Shown piece by piece: positions 1 through 35,211 of a stretch of DNA of 35,211 nucleotides. The notes under the pieces were generated by a model. The model was not told the origin of the DNA and made no database searches. It saw only the letters and a program-made list of their open reading frames with translations. This stretch comes from a virus. The translations under genes were made by a program, and so were the position numbers. Location of the stretch: the IMG/VR virus record IMGVR_UViG_3300027972_000036, positions 1 through 35,211 of that record; one strand, written 5' to 3'. Position 1 is the first letter of the stretch. Each line of letters begins with the position of its first letter.

Positions 1-1695
1 GACCTATCAAATAATCTCCAAACATTGGAGTTATCTGCTGCAATAGATGAAGGTGATAATAGATTAACCGAATATATAAACACACTATCAGATTCATTAT
101 CCGCAAGTGCTAAAGAGGATGACAATAGGTTATATGAATATATAGACCAAAACTTAAATACATTATCCAATAATCTATCGGGAGCAATAGATGAAGGTGA
201 TAATAGGTTATATGAGTATATAGATTATGCTTTATCAACCTTATCTACCAGTATTTCAGGAGCAATAGATGAAGGTGATAATAGATTAACCGAATATATA
301 GACCAAAACTTAAATACCTTATCTACCAACCTTTCAGGGGCAATAAATGAAGGTGATAATAGATTAACCGAATATATAAACACATTATCAGATTCGTTAT
401 CTGCTGCAAGCATTGAAGGTGATAATGCTGTTAGAAATTATATAGATAGTAAGACCATCAGTCTTTCAGGAGCAATAGATGAAGGTGATAATAGGATTTA
501 TGAATATATAGACCAAAATTTAAATACTTTATCTAATAGTCTATCTGCTGCAATAGATGAAGGTGATAATAGATTAACCGAATATATAGATAATAATATA
601 TCAACCACATCAACAAGTTTATCTGCATCTTCAAAAGAGGAAGATAACAGACTATATGAATATATAAATCTTGGTTTAAATACATTATCTACCAGTATTT
701 CAGGAGCAATAGATGAAGGTGATAATAGGTTAACCGAATATATTGATAGTAAGACTGCCAACTTATCTGCATCTTCAAAAGAGGAAGATAATCGTCTATA
801 TGAATATATAGATTATACTCTATCAACAATTAACCTTTCAGGAGCAATAGATGAAGGTGATAATAGGTTATATGAGTATATTGACCAAAATTTAAATACA
901 TTATCTATAAACTTATCTGCATCTTCAAAAGAGGAAGATAACAGACTATATGAATATATTGACCAAAGTTTAAATACATTATCTACCAACCTATCTGCTG
1001 CAATAGATGAAGGTGATAATAGATTAACCGAATATATTGATAGTAAGACTGTCAACCTTTCAGGAGCAATAGATGAAGGTGATAATAGGTTATATGAGCA
1101 TTTATTAACATCATCAAGTATATTATCTGCATCTTCAAAAGAGGAAGATAACAGACTATATGAATATATAGACCAAAGTTTAAATACATTATCTACCAAC
1201 CTATCTGCTGCAATAGATGAAGGTGATAATAGATTAACCGAATATATTGATAGTAACATATCAACCTTATCTACCAACTTATCTGCAAGTTCTAAAGAGG
1301 ATGTTAATAGATTAACCGAATATATAAACACACTATCAGATTCATTATCTGCCGCAAGTGTTGAAAGTGATAATGCTGTTAGAAATTATATAGATAGCAA
1401 GACCATCAATCTATCTGCTTCTATAGATGAAGGTGATAATAGGTTATATGAGTATATTGACCTATCAAATAATCTCCAAACATTGGAGTTATCTGCTTCT
1501 ATAGATGAAGGTGATAATAGGTTAACCGAATATATTGACCAAAGTTTAAATACATTATCTACCAACCTATCTGCTGCAATAGATGAAGGTGATAATAGAT
1601 TAACCGAATATATTGATAATGAGAATAACCTTCAAACATTAGAGTTATCTGCAAGTGCTAAAGAGGATGTTAATAGATTAACCGAATATATTGTA
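1..1695 (+). repeat. Tandem in-frame repeats encoding the fibre shaft
   Basis: About 23 imperfect units of 66 or 78 bp. Units carry DEGDNR, KEEDNR or KEDVNR cores and alternate L-T-E-Y and L-Y-E-Y. The long units have four extra residues (for example in QNLNTLSTN). Blocks of several tens of bases recur almost identically, for instance around 990-1040, 1200-1250 and 1570-1620, which is enough homology for recombination to change shaft length. Confidence 0.9.
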
Positions 1696-2676
1696 GATAC
1701 CTATACACATAAAAATCTAATCATAAATGGAAATTTTCAAGTTTGGGCAAGAGGAGCAACATTTACATCACCAGCATCAAATGCTTATACTTCTGATAGA
1801 TGGAGATATGTTGCAAGTAGTGACGCCGCATGTACTATTACATCCAATTCAGATGTTCCTGCAAATCAAGGAGCACCTACAACATCACTTAATGTTCAAA
1901 TTACAACAGCAGATTCAAGTATTGGTGCTACTCAATATTTTATGATTGGTTACAATATTGAAGGTTATGATTTCAAATATATTCAAGGTAAAACTGGTGT
2001 ATTATCATTTTGGGTTAAAGCATATAAAACAGGAACATACTGTATATCAATGAGAAATAGTACTAATGATGCATCTTACGCAACAGATTTTACTATAGAC
2101 TCATCTGCTACTTGGGAGAAAAAAGAAATATTAATAGTATTTGATGGTGGTGGTATTGGAACTTGGAATTACACAAATGGTAGTGGATTAGAAATCTTTT
2201 TTGTTCTTGCTTGTGGTTCTGATAGACATGTTTCAAGTGTGGATACCTGGGAAAATGCAAATAAATTAGCAACATCTAATATTGATAATAATATCAATAG
2301 TACATCTAACTATTTCAGATTGGCACAAGTTCAATTGGAACCAGGAACGATTGCAACACCATTTGAGTTTAGACCTACGGTAGTAGAAACTGCAATGTGT
2401 CAACGATATTATATGAATAGTTATGCAACTGGTCAAGGTTATGGTTATAGATATGGTTTAGCAGGTGTTGTTTGTGGAATTGATGGTGATACATTTCATA
2501 CAAGAATGCGAGATAATCCTGATGCTGCTATTGTAACAGCACCAACATATAATAACTGTGCGGACTATGATTTAGTTTCTAATACTATTGGTTGGATACA
2601 TAGAGTAACAGTAACAGCAAATGGTTCTTTTAGAGCATATGCGGGTTTATATTCTTTTGATGCGGAGATAATGTAA
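1..2676 (+). CDS. Long tail fibre protein, 5'-truncated by window edge
   Basis: The reading frame is open from base 1, and the first codons (DLSNNLQTLELSA) repeat a segment seen again near 1460-1500, so the gene begins upstream and the TTG at 25 is not its start. Of 891 visible residues, about 570 form 23 tandem units of 22 or 26 residues with the core I-D-E-G-D-N-R-L-x-E-Y-I-D. These should form a long trimeric coiled-coil-like shaft. From about residue 571 (NLIINGNFQVW) a non-repeated, beta-rich C-terminal domain of ~320 residues follows. The N-L-x-I-N-G-N-F-x-V-W opening is common in phage tail-fibre/receptor-binding proteins, including the later Q-x-E-x-G-x-x-A-T-P-F-E-x-R-P stretch. The role is probably host receptor binding at the virion periphery. 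The next gene overlaps the stop codon by one base, as for a fibre/assembly-protein pair. Confidence 0.85.
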   Translation, partial: DLSNNLQTLELSAAIDEGDNRLTEYINTLSDSLSASAKEDDNRLYEYIDQNLNTLSNNLSGAIDEGDNRLYEYIDYALSTLSTSISGAIDEGDNRLTEYIDQNLNTLSTNLSGAINEGDNRLTEYINTLSDSLSAASIEGDNAVRNYIDSKTISLSGAIDEGDNRIYEYIDQNLNTLSNSLSAAIDEGDNRLTEYIDNNISTTSTSLSASSKEEDNRLYEYINLGLNTLSTSISGAIDEGDNRLTEYIDSKTANLSASSKEEDNRLYEYIDYTLSTINLSGAIDEGDNRLYEYIDQNLNTLSINLSASSKEEDNRLYEYIDQSLNTLSTNLSAAIDEGDNRLTEYIDSKTVNLSGAIDEGDNRLYEHLLTSSSILSASSKEEDNRLYEYIDQSLNTLSTNLSAAIDEGDNRLTEYIDSNISTLSTNLSASSKEDVNRLTEYINTLSDSLSAASVESDNAVRNYIDSKTINLSASIDEGDNRLYEYIDLSNNLQTLELSASIDEGDNRLTEYIDQSLNTLSTNLSAAIDEGDNRLTEYIDNENNLQTLELSASAKEDVNRLTEYIVDTYTHKNLIINGNFQVWARGATFTSPASNAYTSDRWRYVASSDAACTITSNSDVPANQGAPTTSLNVQITTADSSIGATQYFMIGYNIEGYDFKYIQGKTGVLSFWVKAYKTGTYCISMRNSTNDASYATDFTIDSSATWEKKEILIVFDGGGIGTWNYTNGSGLEIFFVLACGSDRHVSSVDTWENANKLATSNIDNNINSTSNYFRLAQVQLEPGTIATPFEFRPTVVETAMCQRYYMNSYATGQGYGYRYGLAGVVCGIDGDTFHTRMRDNPDAAIVTAPTYNNCADYDLVSNTIGWIHRVTVTANGSFRAYAGLYSFDAEIM

Positions 2677-4829: not shown

Positions 4830-5606
4830 ATGAAACTTATTACTGAAACATCTTATGAACTTCAATTAGTAGAAAGCAAATCAGATAAAAACATGCATAT
4901 TGTTGGTATCTTTTCATCTGCTGAAATTGAAAATAACAATAAGAGAAAATACAAAAGAGATATACTTGAAAGAGAAATTAAAAAGATTAATGAAAAAGTA
5001 GATAAAGGTTCTCTATGGGGTGAACTTGGACATCCACCAAATCCAGAAATTAATATGGACAAAATCGCTATATTAACCAAGATGGTTGAGTGGAAAGGTG
5101 ACCATGTTTATGGTAAAGCAAAAGTACTTGACACACCTATGGGACAAATAGCAAAAACATTAGTAAAAGAAGGTAGTTTAGGTATATCATCACGAGGTCT
5201 CGGAACAGTATCAGAAAATGGATATGTTAATGAAGACTTTAATTTGATAACATGGGACCTTGTAACAGACCCATCAAATAATCCTTCTTGGATTAATGGA
5301 ATATATGAAGGTAAGGAGTTTAATATGAAAAATGAGGAATCAGCATATCAAAAATTCTTCCAAGAAAAATTAAAGAAATATAATGTATCATCTCCAAGTG
5401 AGTTATCACCTGAAGAAAAAAAGAAATTTTTTGATGAAGTTGAAAAAGAATGGAAGGGTGATACCAAAAATGAGAATGTTATGGATAATGTAGTTGAATA
5501 TCTACAAGCATTCATTTTCAAAGGTAAAACAAAAGAACAAATTAAAAGAATTGTTGAATCAAATAAAGAAGGTATAATTGAATTTTACTTGAACAGAGGT
5601 TTATAA
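4830..5606 (+). CDS. 21: Prohead core serine protease, gp21-like (family S77)
   Basis: 258 residues. It would mature the prohead by cutting scaffold, capsid and internal proteins after (I/L)-x-E. Visible motifs are N-K-R-K-Y near residue 37, the catalytic-His loop G-E-L-G-H-P with His68, and the nucleophile loop G-S-L-G-I-S-S-R-G with Ser120/Ser121, matching T4 gp21 (GELNHPP and GVSSRGLG). A downstream D-L-V-T-D-P-S matches the third conserved block. The C-terminal ~70 residues are a charged helical tail, expected to be removed by self-processing. The N-terminus M-K-L-I-T-E also ends in an I-x-E site. It lies between portal and scaffold genes, as in T4. Confidence 0.92.
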   Translation: MKLITETSYELQLVESKSDKNMHIVGIFSSAEIENNNKRKYKRDILEREIKKINEKVDKGSLWGELGHPPNPEINMDKIAILTKMVEWKGDHVYGKAKVLDTPMGQIAKTLVKEGSLGISSRGLGTVSENGYVNEDFNLITWDLVTDPSNNPSWINGIYEGKEFNMKNEESAYQKFFQEKLKKYNVSSPSELSPEEKKKFFDEVEKEWKGDTKNENVMDNVVEYLQAFIFKGKTKEQIKRIVESNKEGIIEFYLNRGL

Positions 5607-5815
5607 TGAAATTACTAAGTAAAATAGATAGATTTATATCCGAATCAAGTGAGATGGCTTTCAATACTTGGTGGACTAAACAAACACAAGTATATCTGAA
5701 AGGAAACGAAGTATTGTGGACTCAAAGTTGGGATTATCCTATCGGCTCTATTGTAACAGAAGAAGATATTGACGATATGAATAAAAAAGGGTACACCGTA
5801 ATTCATTGGAAATAA
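5606..5815 (+). CDS. Hypothetical protein, possible packaged head protein
   Basis: 69 residues, start overlapping the protease stop (TAATG). No family recognised. The first 13 residues, MKLLSKIDRFISE, resemble the T4 capsid-targeting leader (MKTYQEFIAE) and end in I-S-E, a gp21-type cleavage site, so it may be an internal head protein carried with the scaffold. The rest is aromatic-rich (several Trp) and looks like a small folded beta domain. The position between protease and scaffold fits a head role. Confidence 0.6.
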   Translation: MKLLSKIDRFISESSEMAFNTWWTKQTQVYLKGNEVLWTQSWDYPIGSIVTEEDIDDMNKKGYTVIHWK

Positions 5816-5895: not shown

Positions 5896-6897
5896 ATGGA
5901 TAAACTTTTACAATTGCTTGGTGCAGATAAGCTTAATGAATCTACTCAAGCAGAAATCAAAACAAAGCTACAAGATGTAATCGACATCAAGGCTAAAGAA
6001 ATTTCTGAAAGCAAACTTGATGAAGAAAAGGAAGCTTTAGTTGAGAAGTATGAACAAAAATTTGAAGAATATAAGAAAGATGTAACAACCAAATTCTCAA
6101 ATTTTGTTGATAACATTCTTGAAGAAGAACTTGCAATTCCTGAAAAAATTTTGGAGTTCGCAAAAAAGGGTGAACTTTATGATGACCTTATTGAACAATT
6201 TAAAGTTCGTCTTGGTGTAGATCAAGGACTTTTGGATGAAGAAGTTAAAAGTCTTTTGAAAGAAGCAAAGGAAGAAATTCTTAAACTTCGCAAAGAAATG
6301 AACTCAATAACAGAAAAGAATTTGGAAGTTGTTTCTGATGCACAAAAAATGGCAGCACAACTTTATTTGTATGAGAAATGTGAAGGCTTGACCGAGAAAC
6401 AAAAGGGTCATGTTATGGCAGTTCTCGAAGGTGTTCAAGACAAAGCAGAAATTGATCGTAAATTTTCAATTATAGTTGAACAATATGAGGAAAAAGACGA
6501 TGAAAAAGACACCAAAAAAGACAAAAAAGACAAAAAAGCCGAAGACGGAAAAGAAGTAGATGAAGAAGATGATGAGGACGAGGACGAGGATGATGAGGAC
6601 GAGGACGACGAAAAGAAAGAAGTAGATGAAGAAGATGAAAAAGAAGATGATGAGGACAAAGAAGAAGTAGATGAAGAAGATGATGAAGAAGATGAAAAGA
6701 AAGATAAGAAAGAAGTAGACGAAGAAGACGACGAAGACGAAGAAGACAAAAAGAAAGAAGACAAAAAAGAAAAAATGTCTGAAGGTCATTCCGAAATCAA
6801 AAAACGTAAAAAGAAAAAAATGATTAAAGAAGATACCAGTCCTTTCGCATCATTCAAAAAACAATACTTAAATATTTTAAGAACAAATAAAATCTAA
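5896..6897 (+). CDS. 22: Prohead scaffold protein, gp22-like
   Basis: 333 residues. It would form the internal core around which the capsid assembles and then be degraded by the gp21-like protease. Residues 1-200 are charged, predicted alpha-helical/coiled-coil (M-D-K-L-L-Q-L-L-G opening). Residues ~200-295 are an extreme acidic tract of E-V-D-E-E-D-D type repeats, separated by short lysine runs. A basic, conserved-looking tail follows (S-E-I-K-K-R-K-K-K-K-M then S-P-F-A-S-F). Position between protease and major capsid genes identifies it; T4 gp22 is also acidic and helical (269 residues). Ribosome site TTTAGGAGG is strong, as expected for an abundant protein. Confidence 0.85.
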   Translation: MDKLLQLLGADKLNESTQAEIKTKLQDVIDIKAKEISESKLDEEKEALVEKYEQKFEEYKKDVTTKFSNFVDNILEEELAIPEKILEFAKKGELYDDLIEQFKVRLGVDQGLLDEEVKSLLKEAKEEILKLRKEMNSITEKNLEVVSDAQKMAAQLYLYEKCEGLTEKQKGHVMAVLEGVQDKAEIDRKFSIIVEQYEEKDDEKDTKKDKKDKKAEDGKEVDEEDDEDEDEDDEDEDDEKKEVDEEDEKEDDEDKEEVDEEDDEEDEKKDKKEVDEEDDEDEEDKKKEDKKEKMSEGHSEIKKRKKKKMIKEDTSPFASFKKQYLNILRTNKI

Positions 6898-6947: not shown

Positions 6948-8150
6948 ATGGAAATTAAAGACTTGTTAGTTAAGTGGAAAGAAGTTCTTAATGAAGGTAA
7001 TGAAATTAAGAACTATAATGTTCGTAGAGCAACAGCAATCATGCTTGAAAATGAGCATAACTTTCTGATGGAAGCAACAGCATTCGGTAATGACTCTCTT
7101 GGTACACAAGCTGGTTACGCTGGATCAGGTATGTTCCACAAAATCGCAGTACCTATGGTTCGTAGAACCTTCCCTGAATTAGTAGCACACGACCTCGTTG
7201 GTGTTCAACCAATGACAGGTCCAGTTGGTTTGGCATTCGCAATTCGCTTTAGAGCCGGTCAAGATTACGACTCAACAGCAAATGTTGAACTTGGATATAA
7301 TACAATTGATTCAACTTATTCTGGATCAGTTATTACATCCGCTGGTGAAACTTTGGGTTCCGATGCAGGCACAAATAACCGTGGTCTTGGTATCGGTACA
7401 AACGCAGAAATTAAAGAAGTAAACATGACAGTTGAAAAAGCACAAATCGAAGCAAAAACAAGAAAGTTGAGAAGTAGATGGTCTCTTGAAGTTGCACAAG
7501 ATTTGAAGGCTATGCACGGATTGAATCTTGAAGAAGAAATGATGGACATTCTGGCTTATGAAATCACAGCAGAAATTGACCGTGAATTGATTCAAAAGAT
7601 TGACTCAGTTTGTGTTGCCGGTGGTGCACTTTTTGACAGAACTTGGAACTACCAAGCAGCTTCAGGTACAGGCGTTCCAGGTGGTAGATGGGAACTTGAA
7701 AGATATAGAGAACTTTATCACTATATCCTAAGACGTTCACAAGATATTGCAATTAATACTCGTAGAGGTTCTGGTAACTGGATCGTTGGTAACCCATACG
7801 CCGTAGCAATTTTTGAAGCAATGGCCGGTTTTACTATCGCACCAGTCGCTGGTAATGTTAATACATCACAAGTTGGTATCGCAAGAATCGGTTCTATTGA
7901 TGGAAGATTGAGTGTTTATCGTGACACCTTCCAATCATCAAATCAATTCCTTATTGGTTATAAAGGACCTTCAGAATATGATACAGGTGTTATTTACCTG
8001 CCTTATGTTCAATTGCTGGCATCCCGTGCAGTATTTGAAGATTCATTCCATCCAACAGTTGGCTTGATGTCAAGATATGGTATTCACGATCATCTATATG
8101 GATCAAAGAATTACTATCAAAAAGTTTCTTTGACAAATCTACCTGCCTAA
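6948..8150 (+). CDS. 23: Major capsid protein, gp23-like
   Basis: 400 residues, HK97-fold major head protein of the T4 gp23 family; shorter than T4 gp23 (521). Recognisable segments include G-M-F-H-K-I-A-V-P-M-V-R-R-T-F-P-E-L near residue 63, D-L-V-G-V-Q-P-M-T-G-P-V-G near 85, and the Y-T-G-like C-terminal fold ending in S-R-Y-G-I-H-D-H-L-Y-G near 375. A likely maturation site is N-F-L-M-E|A-T (Glu42/Ala43), which fits the (I/L)-x-E rule of the gp21 protease and implies removal of a 42-residue propeptide. Codon use is richer in C-ending codons than in the neighbours, typical of a highly expressed gene. Ribosome site TAGGAGA. Confidence 0.95.
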   Translation: MEIKDLLVKWKEVLNEGNEIKNYNVRRATAIMLENEHNFLMEATAFGNDSLGTQAGYAGSGMFHKIAVPMVRRTFPELVAHDLVGVQPMTGPVGLAFAIRFRAGQDYDSTANVELGYNTIDSTYSGSVITSAGETLGSDAGTNNRGLGIGTNAEIKEVNMTVEKAQIEAKTRKLRSRWSLEVAQDLKAMHGLNLEEEMMDILAYEITAEIDRELIQKIDSVCVAGGALFDRTWNYQAASGTGVPGGRWELERYRELYHYILRRSQDIAINTRRGSGNWIVGNPYAVAIFEAMAGFTIAPVAGNVNTSQVGIARIGSIDGRLSVYRDTFQSSNQFLIGYKGPSEYDTGVIYLPYVQLLASRAVFEDSFHPTVGLMSRYGIHDHLYGSKNYYQKVSLTNLPA

Positions 8151-8272: not shown

Positions 8273-8773
8273 ATGAAAAAATTTAAAATCTATTGTGACA
8301 TGGATGATGTATTGGTAGATTGGAAAACAAATGTAACAAATTTTTGTGAAAATTTTTGGGACATAGATGATATGGAGAAAAGGTTTTTTCTACTGGTTAA
8401 AGCAGGTAGAAAATTCTGGGCAAGTAATCCTTGGACAATAGATGGTAAAAATCTATGGAAAGGTATAAATACATATAAACCAACTTTACTATCAGCTGCT
8501 GCTCGTGGTAATTTTACAGTACATGAAGATGTAAGAAACGGTAAGTTGGACTGGATAAAAAATAATCTTGGTTATGAATTTTATAAAGATGCAATTATAT
8601 GCCATAGAAAAGAAAAAAAGTTATATTCAAATTCTAATTCTATTTTAATTGATGATTTTGAACAAAACATAAATGAATGGGAAGATAACGGAGGTATTGG
8701 CATATTACACAAATCAAGTGATGAAACCATAGAAAAATTGAATAGTATTGTTAAGGAAAAAATACAATGTTAG
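8273..8773 (+). CDS. HAD-family 5'(3')-deoxyribonucleotidase-like protein
   Basis: 166 residues. Motif I is Y-C-D-M-D-D-V near the N-terminus (Asp9 nucleophile, Asp11 acid/base). A later N-G-K-L-D-W-I-K-N-N-L-G segment and motif IV I-L-I-D-D-F-E-Q-N-I near residue 125, followed by G-G-I-G-I-L-H, match the HAD nucleotidases common in large phages. Expected activity is dephosphorylation of nucleotides or a related small phosphate ester in the cytoplasm; the substrate cannot be told. It is first in a short unit with the small terminase, from the promoter at 8214, and overlaps that gene by 7 bases. Confidence 0.8.
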   Translation: MKKFKIYCDMDDVLVDWKTNVTNFCENFWDIDDMEKRFFLLVKAGRKFWASNPWTIDGKNLWKGINTYKPTLLSAAARGNFTVHEDVRNGKLDWIKNNLGYEFYKDAIICHRKEKKLYSNSNSILIDDFEQNINEWEDNGGIGILHKSSDETIEKLNSIVKEKIQC

Positions 8774-22700: not shown

Positions 22701-23135
22701 ATGGCAAATTATGATCGTGATAAAATTTATGAAGTTTATGAAAGAAGTGTTTTAAAAAAGAAAAAATTAAATGAAATGGATATGGAAAATATTCATAATA
22801 AAATAAAAGATTTTTTTAAAAAAAATCCTAAACCATCGGATGGACAAGTTCATTCATTCGCTAAATCATTAGATATAGATGAGCATGAATTTGAAGAACA
22901 TATTTACATGATTCTTGGTTCTATGTTAAAGGAAGATAAAATAAAAGGTGGTTTAGCCGATAAAAAGAAACCTGAAGATTTTGATCCCAAAGAATTAAAA
23001 ATAGGTATTAAAATTGAAATGGAACATACAAATGATGAAAAATTAGCAAAAGAAATTGCCATGGATCATCTTACAGAAATACCTGATTATTATACAAGAT
23101 TAAAAGATATGGAAAAAAATGTAGAGAAGGAATAA
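22701..23135 (+). CDS. DUF5661-like protein
   Basis: 144 residues. The N-terminal ~75 residues are helical (D-R-D-K-I-Y-E-V-Y-E-R-S, then P-S-D-G-Q-V-H-S-F-A-K-S-L). The C-terminal part G-L-A-D-K-K-K-P-E-D-F-D-P-K-E-L plus I-G-I-K-I-E-M-E-H-T and A-K-E-I-A-M-D-H-L-T-E-I-P-D-Y-Y is the pattern I associate with DUF5661, a small phage/bacterial domain of unknown function. Its His/Glu/Asp content would suit metal binding. It sits 3 bases before the ferritin-like gene, so the two may work together. Confidence 0.65.
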   Translation: MANYDRDKIYEVYERSVLKKKKLNEMDMENIHNKIKDFFKKNPKPSDGQVHSFAKSLDIDEHEFEEHIYMILGSMLKEDKIKGGLADKKKPEDFDPKELKIGIKIEMEHTNDEKLAKEIAMDHLTEIPDYYTRLKDMEKNVEKE

Positions 23136-23138
23136 CAA

Positions 23139-23453
23139 ATGAGATTATCACAATTTTTAAGTCCAAAAATAAATGAAATTATTGAGATAAATCCGGAAAA
23201 AATTAAAGGTTTATCACCTAAAGTTGCCAATCTACAAATGCTTAGATTTGCAATTATAGCAGAACTTGATGCTGTAAATATATATGAACAATTTGCAGAT
23301 ATTACAAAAGATGAAAACATTAAAAAGGTTATGTTAGATGTTGCAAGAGAGGAAAAAGTCCATGCAGGTGAATTTAAAAAGCTTATGAAACAAATTGATC
23401 CTGATTATGAAAAAGCCGAAGAAGAAGGTGAAGCTGAGGTGAAGGATATATAA
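23139..23453 (+). CDS. Encapsulated-ferritin-like (EncFtn/rubrerythrin-type) protein
   Basis: 104 residues, two-helix ferritin-like protein. Helix 1 carries A-I-I-A-E42-L-D-A-V-N-I-Y-E; helix 2 carries D-V-A-R-E-E72-K-V-H75-A-G-E-F. The Glu-30-Glu-3-His spacing equals the ferroxidase ligands of encapsulated ferritin (Glu32, Glu62, His65 in the Rhodospirillum protein, from memory). Such half-ferritins dimerise to build a di-iron site, oxidise Fe(II) and normally act inside an encapsulin, a shell with the same HK97 fold as phage capsids. The N-terminus M-R-L-S-Q-F-L-S-P-K-I-N-E resembles a capsid-targeting leader with an I-N-E cleavage site. Its stop overlaps the next ATG (TAATG). Iron storage or oxidation, possibly within the phage head, is inferred. 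Confidence 0.75.
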   Translation: MRLSQFLSPKINEIIEINPEKIKGLSPKVANLQMLRFAIIAELDAVNIYEQFADITKDENIKKVMLDVAREEKVHAGEFKKLMKQIDPDYEKAEEEGEAEVKDI

Positions 23454-23722
23454 TGAATATATTAGATAAGTTAAATATTATCTTAGAAGAAAAAGATAAT
23501 ACAAAATTTAAAAACGGACAAACAACTGATGTTCCAAAAGAGTTGATAAGTAAGGCTCAAAAGGAATTAGCAAGAAAACATGGTAGAAAACCAGATGAGT
23601 TTAAATTCTATTCAGTTTATGTTCCTGGTTTTAAAAACAAAGTATTTCTCCTTTTTAATGTTAAATTATTTACAGATAAACCAACCACAATAAGTTATGA
23701 ATTAAATGACAAAGAAAAATAA
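23453..23722 (+). CDS. Hypothetical protein (89 aa)
   Basis: 89 residues, translationally coupled to the ferritin-like gene. The opening MNILDKLNIILEE contains an I-L-E site that could be cut by the prohead protease. The core P-K-E-L-I-S-K-A-Q-K-E-L-A-R-K-H-G (helix) and K-F-Y-S-V-Y-V-P-G-F-K-N-K-V-F-L-L-F-N-V (strands) look like a small alpha/beta domain. No family recognised. It may be a further packaged or accessory protein of the ferritin cluster. Confidence 0.6.
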   Translation: MNILDKLNIILEEKDNTKFKNGQTTDVPKELISKAQKELARKHGRKPDEFKFYSVYVPGFKNKVFLLFNVKLFTDKPTTISYELNDKEK

Positions 23723-33632: not shown

Positions 33633-34370
33633 ATGAGATTAGATGATTATATATTAGAAGATACAAAAATATCAACTGAAGAAGGTTTAGAGGATATTAA
33701 AAAGAATTGCTCCGAATATATAAGGGAGTTGAGGTCTGGTAGAAACCTTTTTGTTAGATTATCAGAAAGTTATAAACCAATAGATCATAATAAAATACTC
33801 ATTATACCTCCTAAATCGGATAGAATACCGATTGATACTCCTAAAGATGTTCACCATGTTATAGATAACTTACTAAAAGCTAAATTCGGTTGGAAGCCAC
33901 GGTCCGAAGCACTCTTTGTATGGATAACAGAACAAAAGAATCCAAGATGGAATTGGTACTCATTTTGGAAAGAAGTGAGATTAATCTTTCCAATAGATGG
34001 ATATAAATATGTTTATTCATCCATGATAGGTGACCTCTTTTTAAAATATGAAACTTTTTTAAATGATTATGATTATCCTATATATCCAGATTCCTATGAT
34101 GATAATAAAATTAATAATGATATAAAAGATAAATTTTTTGAGTGGTTTAAAAATAAGGGTTTACCAACATATACAAAACTTAATGCGTTAAGAATGGGTG
34201 CAACTAAACATAAAAGAACTGAGTGTATGTTGAAAGCAAAAAAATATTATGCAATATCATCACTCCATATACCACGATTAAATGACCTTTTTAATCTTGA
34301 TATACAACCATCACGGTATAAAATAACCGATTTAGAACCAAAGCATGAATTTAACATGGATGAAACTTAA
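33633..34370 (+). CDS. Tandem-array protein 1, possible ADP-ribosyltransferase-like, leader-bearing
   Basis: 245 residues; first of at least three tandem paralogues. The N-terminus M-R-L-D-D-Y-I-L-E resembles the T4 capsid-targeting leader and ends with an I-L-E protease site. Conserved blocks are N-C-S-E-Y-I-R-E-L-R-S-G-R-N-L-F-V-R, L-L-K-A-K-F-G-W-K-P-R-S-E-A-L-F-V-W-I and F-P-I-D-G-Y-K-Y-V-Y-S. Their order (Arg-ended strand, R-S-x-x strand, later Y-S/D block) recalls a phage protein family with an ADP-ribosyltransferase-like layout, but no clear catalytic E-x-E is visible. May be packaged in the head and injected, as T4 Alt is; this is inference. Confidence 0.6.
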   Translation: MRLDDYILEDTKISTEEGLEDIKKNCSEYIRELRSGRNLFVRLSESYKPIDHNKILIIPPKSDRIPIDTPKDVHHVIDNLLKAKFGWKPRSEALFVWITEQKNPRWNWYSFWKEVRLIFPIDGYKYVYSSMIGDLFLKYETFLNDYDYPIYPDSYDDNKINNDIKDKFFEWFKNKGLPTYTKLNALRMGATKHKRTECMLKAKKYYAISSLHIPRLNDLFNLDIQPSRYKITDLEPKHEFNMDET

Positions 34371-35110
34371 TGAAACTTAATGAATATCTAATAACAGAAA
34401 CACAAAAAATTAGTTTTGAAGGGTTCTTACATATAGTTAAAAGAACTTGTTCGGAATATATAAGGGAGTTAAAGGCTGGTAAGAACTTCTTTATAAGAAA
34501 CCGTGTAGGTTTCACTTCTATCAACTCAAGTGATGTTATACTTATTCCCGCAAGAGAGGACAGGGTTCCTCGTGATATGAGTATAACATTACATAACGAA
34601 ATGGATGCTTTACTAAAAGCTAAGTTTGGTTGGAGACCACGGTCCGACTCGCTCTTTGTATGGATAACTCCGCAATCAGAAACAACAACCCGAAAAGGTA
34701 ATGGAGCAGATAGAAACAGAATTATCTTTCCATCTAATGGTTATAAATATGTATACTCACCAGAAGTTAATGATGTTTATTTTGAATATGAAAATATAAT
34801 GTCAAATATGCCAGATAATAATGACCGTGATGGTGTATATGGTGAGTTTGATGAGGACGAAGTTGAGGATGAGTTTTTAAATTGGTTCACAAAGGAAGCA
34901 CTACCAACATACACCGATAAAGGTGCATTAAAAACCAAGTTAGCACGATTTGATGGAAATGTAGAGTGTATGTTAAGAGCAAATAAAATATATGTTGTTT
35001 CCCAAAACTATATAGAGGTACTTAATAAACACCTTGGTATAAATATAAAACCAATAGAAAAAGAAGTTCCACATAAATCACTCCGATATAACAGTGAGAT
35101 TAATAAATGA
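34370..35110 (+). CDS. Tandem-array protein 2, paralogue of 33633 gene
   Basis: 246 residues, one-base overlap with the preceding gene (TAATG). Leader M-K-L-N-E-Y-L-I-T-E ends in an I-T-E site. Shares C-S-E-Y-I-R-E-L-K-A-G-K-N-F-F-I-R, K-F-G-W-R-P-R-S-D-S-L-F-V-W-I-T and G-Y-K-Y-V-Y-S-P-E-V-N-D with its neighbour, and the C-terminal L-P-T-Y-T-D-K-G-A-L. DNA identity is high in the C-S-E-Y-I-R-E-L block, so the duplication is fairly recent. Function as for array protein 1: unknown, possibly ART-like. Confidence 0.6.
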   Translation: MKLNEYLITETQKISFEGFLHIVKRTCSEYIRELKAGKNFFIRNRVGFTSINSSDVILIPAREDRVPRDMSITLHNEMDALLKAKFGWRPRSDSLFVWITPQSETTTRKGNGADRNRIIFPSNGYKYVYSPEVNDVYFEYENIMSNMPDNNDRDGVYGEFDEDEVEDEFLNWFTKEALPTYTDKGALKTKLARFDGNVECMLRANKIYVVSQNYIEVLNKHLGINIKPIEKEVPHKSLRYNSEINK

Positions 35111-35211
35111 GGTTAAATAACTATCTAACAGAATTTAAAGTTATAAAAATGGAGGATACTTTAACTCTATTAAAAAGAAATTGTTCGGAGTATATAAGGG
35201 AGTTGAGGTCT
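35107..35211 (+). CDS. Tandem-array protein 3, truncated by window end
   Basis: Starts at ATG 35107, overlapping the preceding stop by ATGA; 35 codons are visible. The leader M-R-L-N-N-Y-L-T-E ends in an L-T-E site, followed by L-K-R-N-C-S-E-Y-I-R-E-L-R-S, clearly the same family as the two preceding genes. The gene continues past the window. Confidence 0.75.
   Translation, partial: MRLNNYLTEFKVIKMEDTLTLLKRNCSEYIRELRS

What the first reader, a model, noticed from the sequence alone, without database searches (positions are those of the whole stretch)
33633..35211. Recurring T4 CTS-like leader ending in a gp21-type cleavage site on several unrelated proteins
Starts of the form M-(K/R)-L-x-x-(Y/F)-(I/L)-x-E occur on all three array proteins (MRLDDYILE, MKLNEYLITE, MRLNNYLTE). 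Looser versions begin the 69-aa protein at 5606 (MKLLSKIDRFISE), the ferritin-like protein at 23139 (MRLSQFLSPKINE) and the 89-aa protein at 23453 (MNILDKLNIILE). T4 internal proteins carry MKTYQEFIAE, cut by gp21 after (I/L)-x-E, and this phage has a gp21-like protease. This predicts a set of head-packaged, co-injected proteins found from sequence alone.
Basis: partly seen in the sequence, partly recalled or inferred. Interest (0 to 1): 0.75.

Follow-up and report, generated by a model that had tools for sequence, protein, structure and literature searches.

The report
Head-packaging tags on phage enzyme array
A run of related virus proteins all begin with the same short removable-looking tag, and giant relatives of phage T4 put their own version of that tag on many otherwise unrelated proteins, which most likely marks enzymes to be packed into the virus head and injected with the DNA to disarm or take over the bacterium.

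Summary
The leader on the array proteins is real. A sister contig extends the array from three to five paralogs: MRLDDYILE, MKLNEYLITE, MRLNNYLTE, MRLNEYLTE, MNLLRYIKE. The three looser examples (5606, 23139, 23453) do not hold up as the same leader. Relatives make the case stronger. In several T4-like giant phages, homologous arrays carry a leader that is nearly uniform within a phage, differs between phages, and ends in [I/L]-x-E. The same leader starts unrelated proteins: 21 starts in one contig (0 of 624 internal Met; 12 body clusters), 20 in Atu_ph07 (0/2377), 16 in SCTP-2 (0/2189). Searching the leader alone in 2.9 million viral contigs hit open-frame starts in 33 of 41 distinct proteins, against 3 of 32 for the reversed motif. 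Array bodies look like ADP-ribosyltransferases; other tagged bodies include an Acb1 anti-CBASS enzyme, ART-PolyVal enzymes and Zeta-toxin-like kinases. Atu_ph07 gp53-63 lie inside its mass-spectrometry virion cluster. Best reading: phage-specific T4-type capsid targeting sequences, cut by the gp21-type protease, on head-packed, co-injected effectors. Packaging, cleavage and activity are not shown directly. The principle is known from T4; the array, per-phage leaders and cargo range appear unreported in the papers searched.

The parts
33633..34370 (+). Array protein 1, 245 aa; leader MRLDDYILE = 33633-33659
   Evidence: (phrog_11975 E 5e-15)
34370..35110 (+). Array protein 2, 246 aa; leader MKLNEYLITE = 34370-34399; modelled by AlphaFold2 (pLDDT 85; residues 1-8 below 50)
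35107..35211 (+). Array protein 3, cut off by the window end; leader MRLNNYLTE = 35107-35133; complete (224 aa) in L003, followed there by two more copies
4830..5606 (+). gp21-type prohead protease (Peptidase_S77); begins MKLITE, kept in most relatives, a possible self-cleavage site
5896..6897 (+). gp22-like scaffold protein with many [IL]xE sites
6948..8150 (+). gp23-like major capsid protein; predicted cut L-M-E42|A at about 7065-7073, an LxE kept in relatives
5606..5815 (+). 69-aa protein MKLLSKIDRFISE: leader not conserved in relatives, [IL]xE-[SA] site mostly conserved; possible processed head protein, not a clear leader
22701..23135 (+). DUF5661 protein; no clear leader here, but its homolog in G006 begins MKLKNFLTE and a G003 leader-bearing protein is a DUF5661-ART fusion
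23139..23453 (+). Ferritin-like protein (rubrerythrin / encapsulin-cargo-like), MRLSQFLSPKINE: leader undecided
23453..23722 (+). 89-aa protein MNILDKLNIILE: leader undecided

Best explanation
The first 9-10 residues of the array proteins are a phage-specific capsid targeting sequence of the T4 type. During late infection the leader binds the prohead core, and the gp21-type protease then cuts after [I/L]-x-E, freeing the folded body inside the head. The body is injected with the DNA. The bodies are ADP-ribosyltransferase-like enzymes that probably modify host proteins or counter host defences, as T4 Alt modifies RNA polymerase. Shown here: the leader, its recurrence on unrelated proteins within single phages, the matching protease and capsid-cut motif, and the leader lying outside the confidently folded part. 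Supported but not proven: the ART fold. Inferred: targeting, cleavage, injection and catalytic activity.
For: Leader uniform within phages and different between them: residues 1-9 are 61% vs 27% identical within/between, bodies 37% vs 28%, 0 of 5000 label shuffles reach the difference. Same leader on unrelated bodies: G003 21 starts / 0 of 624 internal Met, 12 body clusters; Atu_ph07 20 / 0 of 2377, 8 clusters; SCTP-2 16 / 0 of 2189, 7 clusters. T4 positive control: MKT[FY]xEF picks ipI, ipII, ipIII and 61.1 out of the whole genome. Leader-only DNA search: 33 of 41 distinct proteins at open-frame starts, including four further array-family proteins in other contigs; reversed motif 3 of 32 and none. 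S77 protease and gp23 in Atu_ph07, G004, G005, SCTP-2 and an L-x-E at the predicted capsid-protein cut in each, as in T4 gp23. Synonymous codon differences among leader copies point to selection on the peptide. gp53-63 of Atu_ph07 lie within CDS 31-76, where 29 proteins were found in virions by ESI-MS/MS. Two AlphaFold2 models put residues 1-8 and 1-7 below pLDDT 50. Tagged proteins include Acb1 (E 2.6e-19), ART-PolyVal, Zeta-toxin-like kinases and an amidoligase.
Against: No virion or cleavage data for this phage. The Atu_ph07 supplement naming the detected proteins could not be read, so no single array protein is confirmed in virions. Outside gp53-63, leader enrichment in Atu virion clusters is not significant (3 of 122 vs 1 of 191, p 0.17). 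In the window itself the leader is clear only on paralogs. ART structural matches are weak for the window protein (best Z 3.5) and Foldseek finds no significant PDB match. G003 is a fragment without a detected protease or gp23.
Confidence: 0.82

Rival explanations
1. The shared starts are a remnant of tandem duplication or gene conversion at the 5' end of the array genes, with no targeting role.
For: The window's array copies are paralogs in overlapping or abutting frames.
Against: The same leader starts unrelated proteins, several at scattered loci: 12, 8 and 7 body clusters in three phages. Leader copies differ at synonymous positions. The leader changes wholesale between phages while bodies stay recognisable.
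Confidence: 0.06
2. The leader docks proteins to another virion part (tail, baseplate, outer fibres) or to an infection compartment; the proteins are virion parts but are not head-internal or injected.
For: Atu_ph07 array genes lie in a virion-protein cluster of mostly unassigned function, and the phage has hair-like fibres.
Against: The [IL]xE ending matches the prohead protease site and the capsid-protein cut; T4 leaders of the same layout are head-targeting; bodies are enzyme-like and include an anti-CBASS protein rather than fibre proteins.
Confidence: 0.08
3. The leader is cut and packaged as proposed, but the array bodies are not active ADP-ribosyltransferases (a degenerate ART fold, for example binding or inhibitor proteins like T4 IPs). 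This is compatible with the targeting part of the best explanation.
For: Window copies have lost the Y-R-G and S-x-S-like context (FIR, SLFVWIT); weak fold match for the window protein.
Against: R43 and E199 are invariant over 21 diverse members; nearly all structural matches of the canonical member are ART superfamily.
Confidence: 0.35

Closest known systems
T4 capsid targeting sequence (internal proteins IPI, IPII, IPIII)
   Same: N-terminal leader of about 10 residues, hydrophobic/aromatic then [IL]xE, on otherwise unrelated proteins; gp21-type protease in the genome
   Different: Leader sequence differs (MRLNxYLTE vs MKTYQEFIAE) and is mostly one residue shorter; here it sits on an enzyme-like array, and each phage has its own version
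T4 Alt, head-packaged ADP-ribosyltransferase
   Same: ART-type enzyme proposed to be packaged and cut near the N-terminus by a gp21-type protease
   Different: No curated ART family model matched the array proteins and a PDB sequence search gave no match; smaller; five copies here, eleven tagged genes in the main Atu_ph07 run
Jumbo-phage ejection/inner-body proteins of phiKZ and SPN3US
   Same: Prohead protease cuts after a Glu motif, and head proteins are ejected into the host
   Different: Distant from the gp23-type phages here; no short uniform leader noted in the passages read
Agrobacterium phage Atu_ph07 gp53-63
   Same: Homologous tandem array with a near-uniform leader M[KR]W[HEQD]QL[TIN]E
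   Different: Different leader; includes fusions to a Zeta-toxin-like kinase and a weakly GNAT-like domain; annotated hypothetical

Membership tests
T4-type capsid targeting sequence | Short N-terminal leader ending in [LI]-x-E, the gp21 cleavage motif | tested here: met
   All five array copies; strict motif at 3 window starts and no internal stretch
T4-type capsid targeting sequence | Same leader on otherwise unrelated proteins of one phage | tested here: met
   Met in relatives G003, Atu_ph07, SCTP-2; inconclusive inside the window, where the clear cases are paralogs
T4-type capsid targeting sequence | gp21-type (S77) protease in the same genome, with matching L-x-E at the capsid-protein cut | tested here: met
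   PF03420 E 1e-25; capsid protein FLME|A, LxE kept in relatives; other phages
T4-type capsid targeting sequence | Hydrophobic/aromatic residues at the targeting positions (T4 residues 4 and 7) | tested here: met
   L3 and Y6 invariant in the five copies, matching T4 positions 4 and 7 with a one-residue shift; T4 data from PMC9026906
T4-type capsid targeting sequence | Leader directs the protein into the head and is cut there | not testable with these tools
   Needs virion proteomics or a fusion assay
ADP-ribosyltransferase superfamily | ART fold | tested here: inconclusive
   Canonical member: 2aua (unknown function) Z 6.8, then exotoxin A Z 3.6, diphtheria toxin 3.4, Arr 3.3, PARP, DarT, Tpt1. 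Window protein: CteC Z 3.5, OspC3/CopC about 2.5. All below 8; Foldseek none significant
ADP-ribosyltransferase superfamily | Conserved catalytic-type Arg and Glu | tested here: met
   R43 and E199 invariant in 21 sequences; their role is inferred from position
ADP-ribosyltransferase superfamily | NAD-dependent transfer activity | not testable with these tools
   Needs an enzyme assay
Acb1 anti-CBASS (tagged protein in G003, not in the window) | Family profile and the two histidine motifs | tested here: met
   PF23474 E 2.6e-19; PDB 7t26 E 3.7e-6 with HTT and HLS motifs aligned

The most novel reading that the evidence does not exclude
Giant T4-like phages use a private, phage-specific N-terminal leader as a cargo code that loads a whole set of effectors (ADP-ribosyltransferase-like arrays, kinases, anti-CBASS Acb1, and others) into the head for co-injection, so a phage's pre-loaded effector set can be read from sequence by finding its leader.
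Probability: 0.65. Interest if true: 0.85.

Novelty: new variant of a known kind. Interest (0 to 1): 0.74.

Why it matters
Which proteins a phage injects with its DNA is usually known only from proteomics of a few model phages. Here a short leader, different in each phage, separates a candidate set of injected effectors from the rest of the genome with almost no background, in phages where most genes have no assigned function. It predicts that counter-defence proteins such as an Acb1 anti-CBASS enzyme can arrive with the DNA rather than being made later, and that some jumbo phages deliver a dozen ADP-ribosyltransferase-like enzymes at once. These predictions can be tested in the isolated phages Atu_ph07 and SCTP-2.

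Tried and rejected
The three looser window leaders were tested and not accepted. Rubrerythrin proteins with a leader in 22 related records: only two matches, neither with a clear leader; a G007 leader protein with a weak ferritin hit is unrelated to the window's ferritin. PDB sequence search with the array profile: nothing. Foldseek against PDB for both models: nothing significant. Pfam on array proteins: no convincing family. Presence of gp23 or the S77 protease among leader-only contigs: found in 9 of 31 records (8 each), not informative because many are short fragments. A general regex alone (M[KRIN]...[IL]xE) is only about two-fold enriched in T4, so the phage-specific leader, not the general rule, carries the signal. 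In Atu_ph07, virion-cluster enrichment rests on the array itself. Failed calls: wrong coordinates (4, 5), a file path (16), pattern length (76), region length (95), report format (114).

Full report
What is in the window. The window is the whole held record, a 35.2-kb virus fragment. It carries a T4-like structural module: a gp21-type protease at 4830-5606 (PF03420, E 1e-25), a gp22-like scaffold, a gp23-like capsid protein (E 5e-92), and what look by size and order like portal and tail genes. At its right end three consecutive genes start with MRLDDYILE, MKLNEYLITE and MRLNNYLTE. A contig that differs at 1 of 1579 bases over this stretch completes the third gene and adds MRLNEYLTE and MNLLRYIKE copies. 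L3, Y6 and the final E are invariant in the five.

How good is the observation. A strict motif matches the three array starts and no internal stretch of the window's 40 proteins. The looser examples are not convincing. The 69-aa protein's start is not kept in relatives whose capsid protein is 78-92% identical, although an [IL]xE site followed by Ser or Ala mostly is. The ferritin-like protein has no independent relative to test. The array proteins are paralogs, so the claim 'unrelated proteins' could not be made from this window alone.

Relatives. The array family is phrog_11975/15932 with a second branch phrog_12810, all of unknown function. In Agrobacterium phage Atu_ph07 eleven consecutive genes (gp53-63) carry such leaders, mostly MRWEQLTE-like. 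G003 (114.7 kb) uses MRAIELYE-like starts, G004 and G005 use MITFKQFLSE-like starts, close to the T4 leader MKTYQEFIAE, and SCTP-2 uses MKINDLLKE-like starts. Within a phage, residues 1-9 are 61% identical and bodies 37%; between phages 27% and 28%; no label shuffle in 5000 matches this.

The leader is not confined to the family. In G003 the leader pattern starts 21 genes and matches none of 624 internal methionines; the bodies fall into 12 clusters with no detectable similarity. In Atu_ph07 the figures are 20, 0 of 2377 and 8; in SCTP-2 16, 0 of 2189 and 7. The patterns were written after seeing the leaders, so array genes match by construction; the unrelated bodies and the empty internal background are the test. 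In T4 the same approach returns ipI, ipII, ipIII and 61.1, which recovers the known internal proteins. Tagged bodies include a Zeta-toxin-like kinase, ART-PolyVal enzymes, a DUF5661-ART fusion and an Acb1 anti-CBASS protein whose domain begins right after the leader.

Blind test. The window leader alone, as a degenerate DNA pattern, was searched in 2.9 million viral contigs. Of 41 distinct proteins, 33 matched at an open-frame start, median length 128 aa, and six belong to the array family, four of them from other contigs. The reversed-order pattern gave 3 of 32 (median 52 aa) and no array member. Besides array proteins the leader hits include a Zeta-toxin-like kinase, an HSP20 protein, an NT5C nucleotidase and a portal protein. 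The portal protein shows that some matches may have another meaning.

Link to the protease. The leader ends in the motif that gp21 cuts (PMC9026906). The capsid proteins of the window phage, Atu_ph07, G004, G005 and SCTP-2 all carry L-x-E near where T4 gp23 has LTE|A, and each of these phages has an S77 protease. T4 mutants assign targeting to residues 4 and 7 and cutting to 8 and 10; the window leader keeps this layout, one residue shorter in most copies.

What the bodies are. An AlphaFold2 model of array protein 2 has pLDDT 85 with residues 1-8 below 50, so the leader lies outside the confident fold; the same holds for a G003 member. R43 and E199 are invariant over 21 members. For the G003 member, after a protein of unknown function (2aua, Z 6.8), nearly all listed matches are ADP-ribosyltransferase-superfamily structures, at Z 2-4. 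For the window protein the top match is also an ART, Z 3.5. These Z values are too low to settle the fold; with the conserved residues I hold an ART-like fold at about 0.7 and activity at about 0.5.

Virion evidence. Counting annotated genes gives gp215 as the capsid protein and gp288, gp292 and gp293 as published, so gp53-63 are inside CDS 31-76, a cluster with 29 proteins found in virions by ESI-MS/MS (PMC6102473). Which of them were found is in a supplement that could not be read. Over the first 324 genes, leader genes are enriched in the virion clusters (14 of 133 vs 1 of 191, p 2e-5), but not once gp53-63 are removed (p 0.17).

What is known. T4 leaders, their use to spot ip genes in T-even phages, and IPs as type IV restriction inhibitors are known (PMC9026906, PMC12373910). 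ARTs in jumbo phages are known as a class (PMC7824862). I found no paper describing phage-specific leaders in T4-like jumbo phages, leader-tagged ART-like arrays, or a tagged Acb1; only open-licence papers were searched.

Conclusion. The leader is most likely a T4-type capsid targeting sequence in a phage-specific form (0.82). It looks and is distributed like the T4 CTS; membership in the strict sense awaits packaging and cleavage data.

Noticed in passing
L041 13945-15033 (- strand), contig G003: Acb1 anti-CBASS protein with the G003-type leader MRYQELLE directly before the domain; suggests a pre-packaged anti-CBASS enzyme.
   Followed up: partly
T4 NC_000866 18966-19130: T4 61.1 (54 aa) begins MKTFKEFIKE, a full CTS-like start, but is not in the T4 head-protein table of PMC9026906.
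   Followed up: no
window 23139-23453: Ferritin-like protein closest to the encapsulin ferritin-like cargo family EncB (NF058679 E 1.7e-18, below its cut-off; EncFtn-like PF22277 above cut-off): a cargo-like ferritin in a phage.
   Followed up: partly
L286 (contig G017, 294 kb): Three nearby proteins begin MQKFSEFVNE, MKNLKTFSEFVNE and MKNLQTFNEFINE: yet another phage-specific T4-like leader.
   Followed up: no
L091 3113-5074 and L115: A portal protein (phrog_18178) begins MRLNNYLPE, a leader-like start on a structural protein.
   Followed up: no
L125 1369-1869 and window 8273-8773: An NT5C-type nucleotidase carries the leader MKLNKYLKE in L125, while the window's weakly similar protein right after the capsid gene has none.
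   Followed up: no
PDB 8hds (Pam3 portal protein): Its C-terminal part matches the tagged Acb1 protein weakly (E 0.0046), hinting at an Acb1-like fold fused to a portal.
   Followed up: no
window 1-2676: 891-aa open frame made largely of imperfect copies of EGDNRLTEYID-type units, probably a fibre protein.
   Followed up: no
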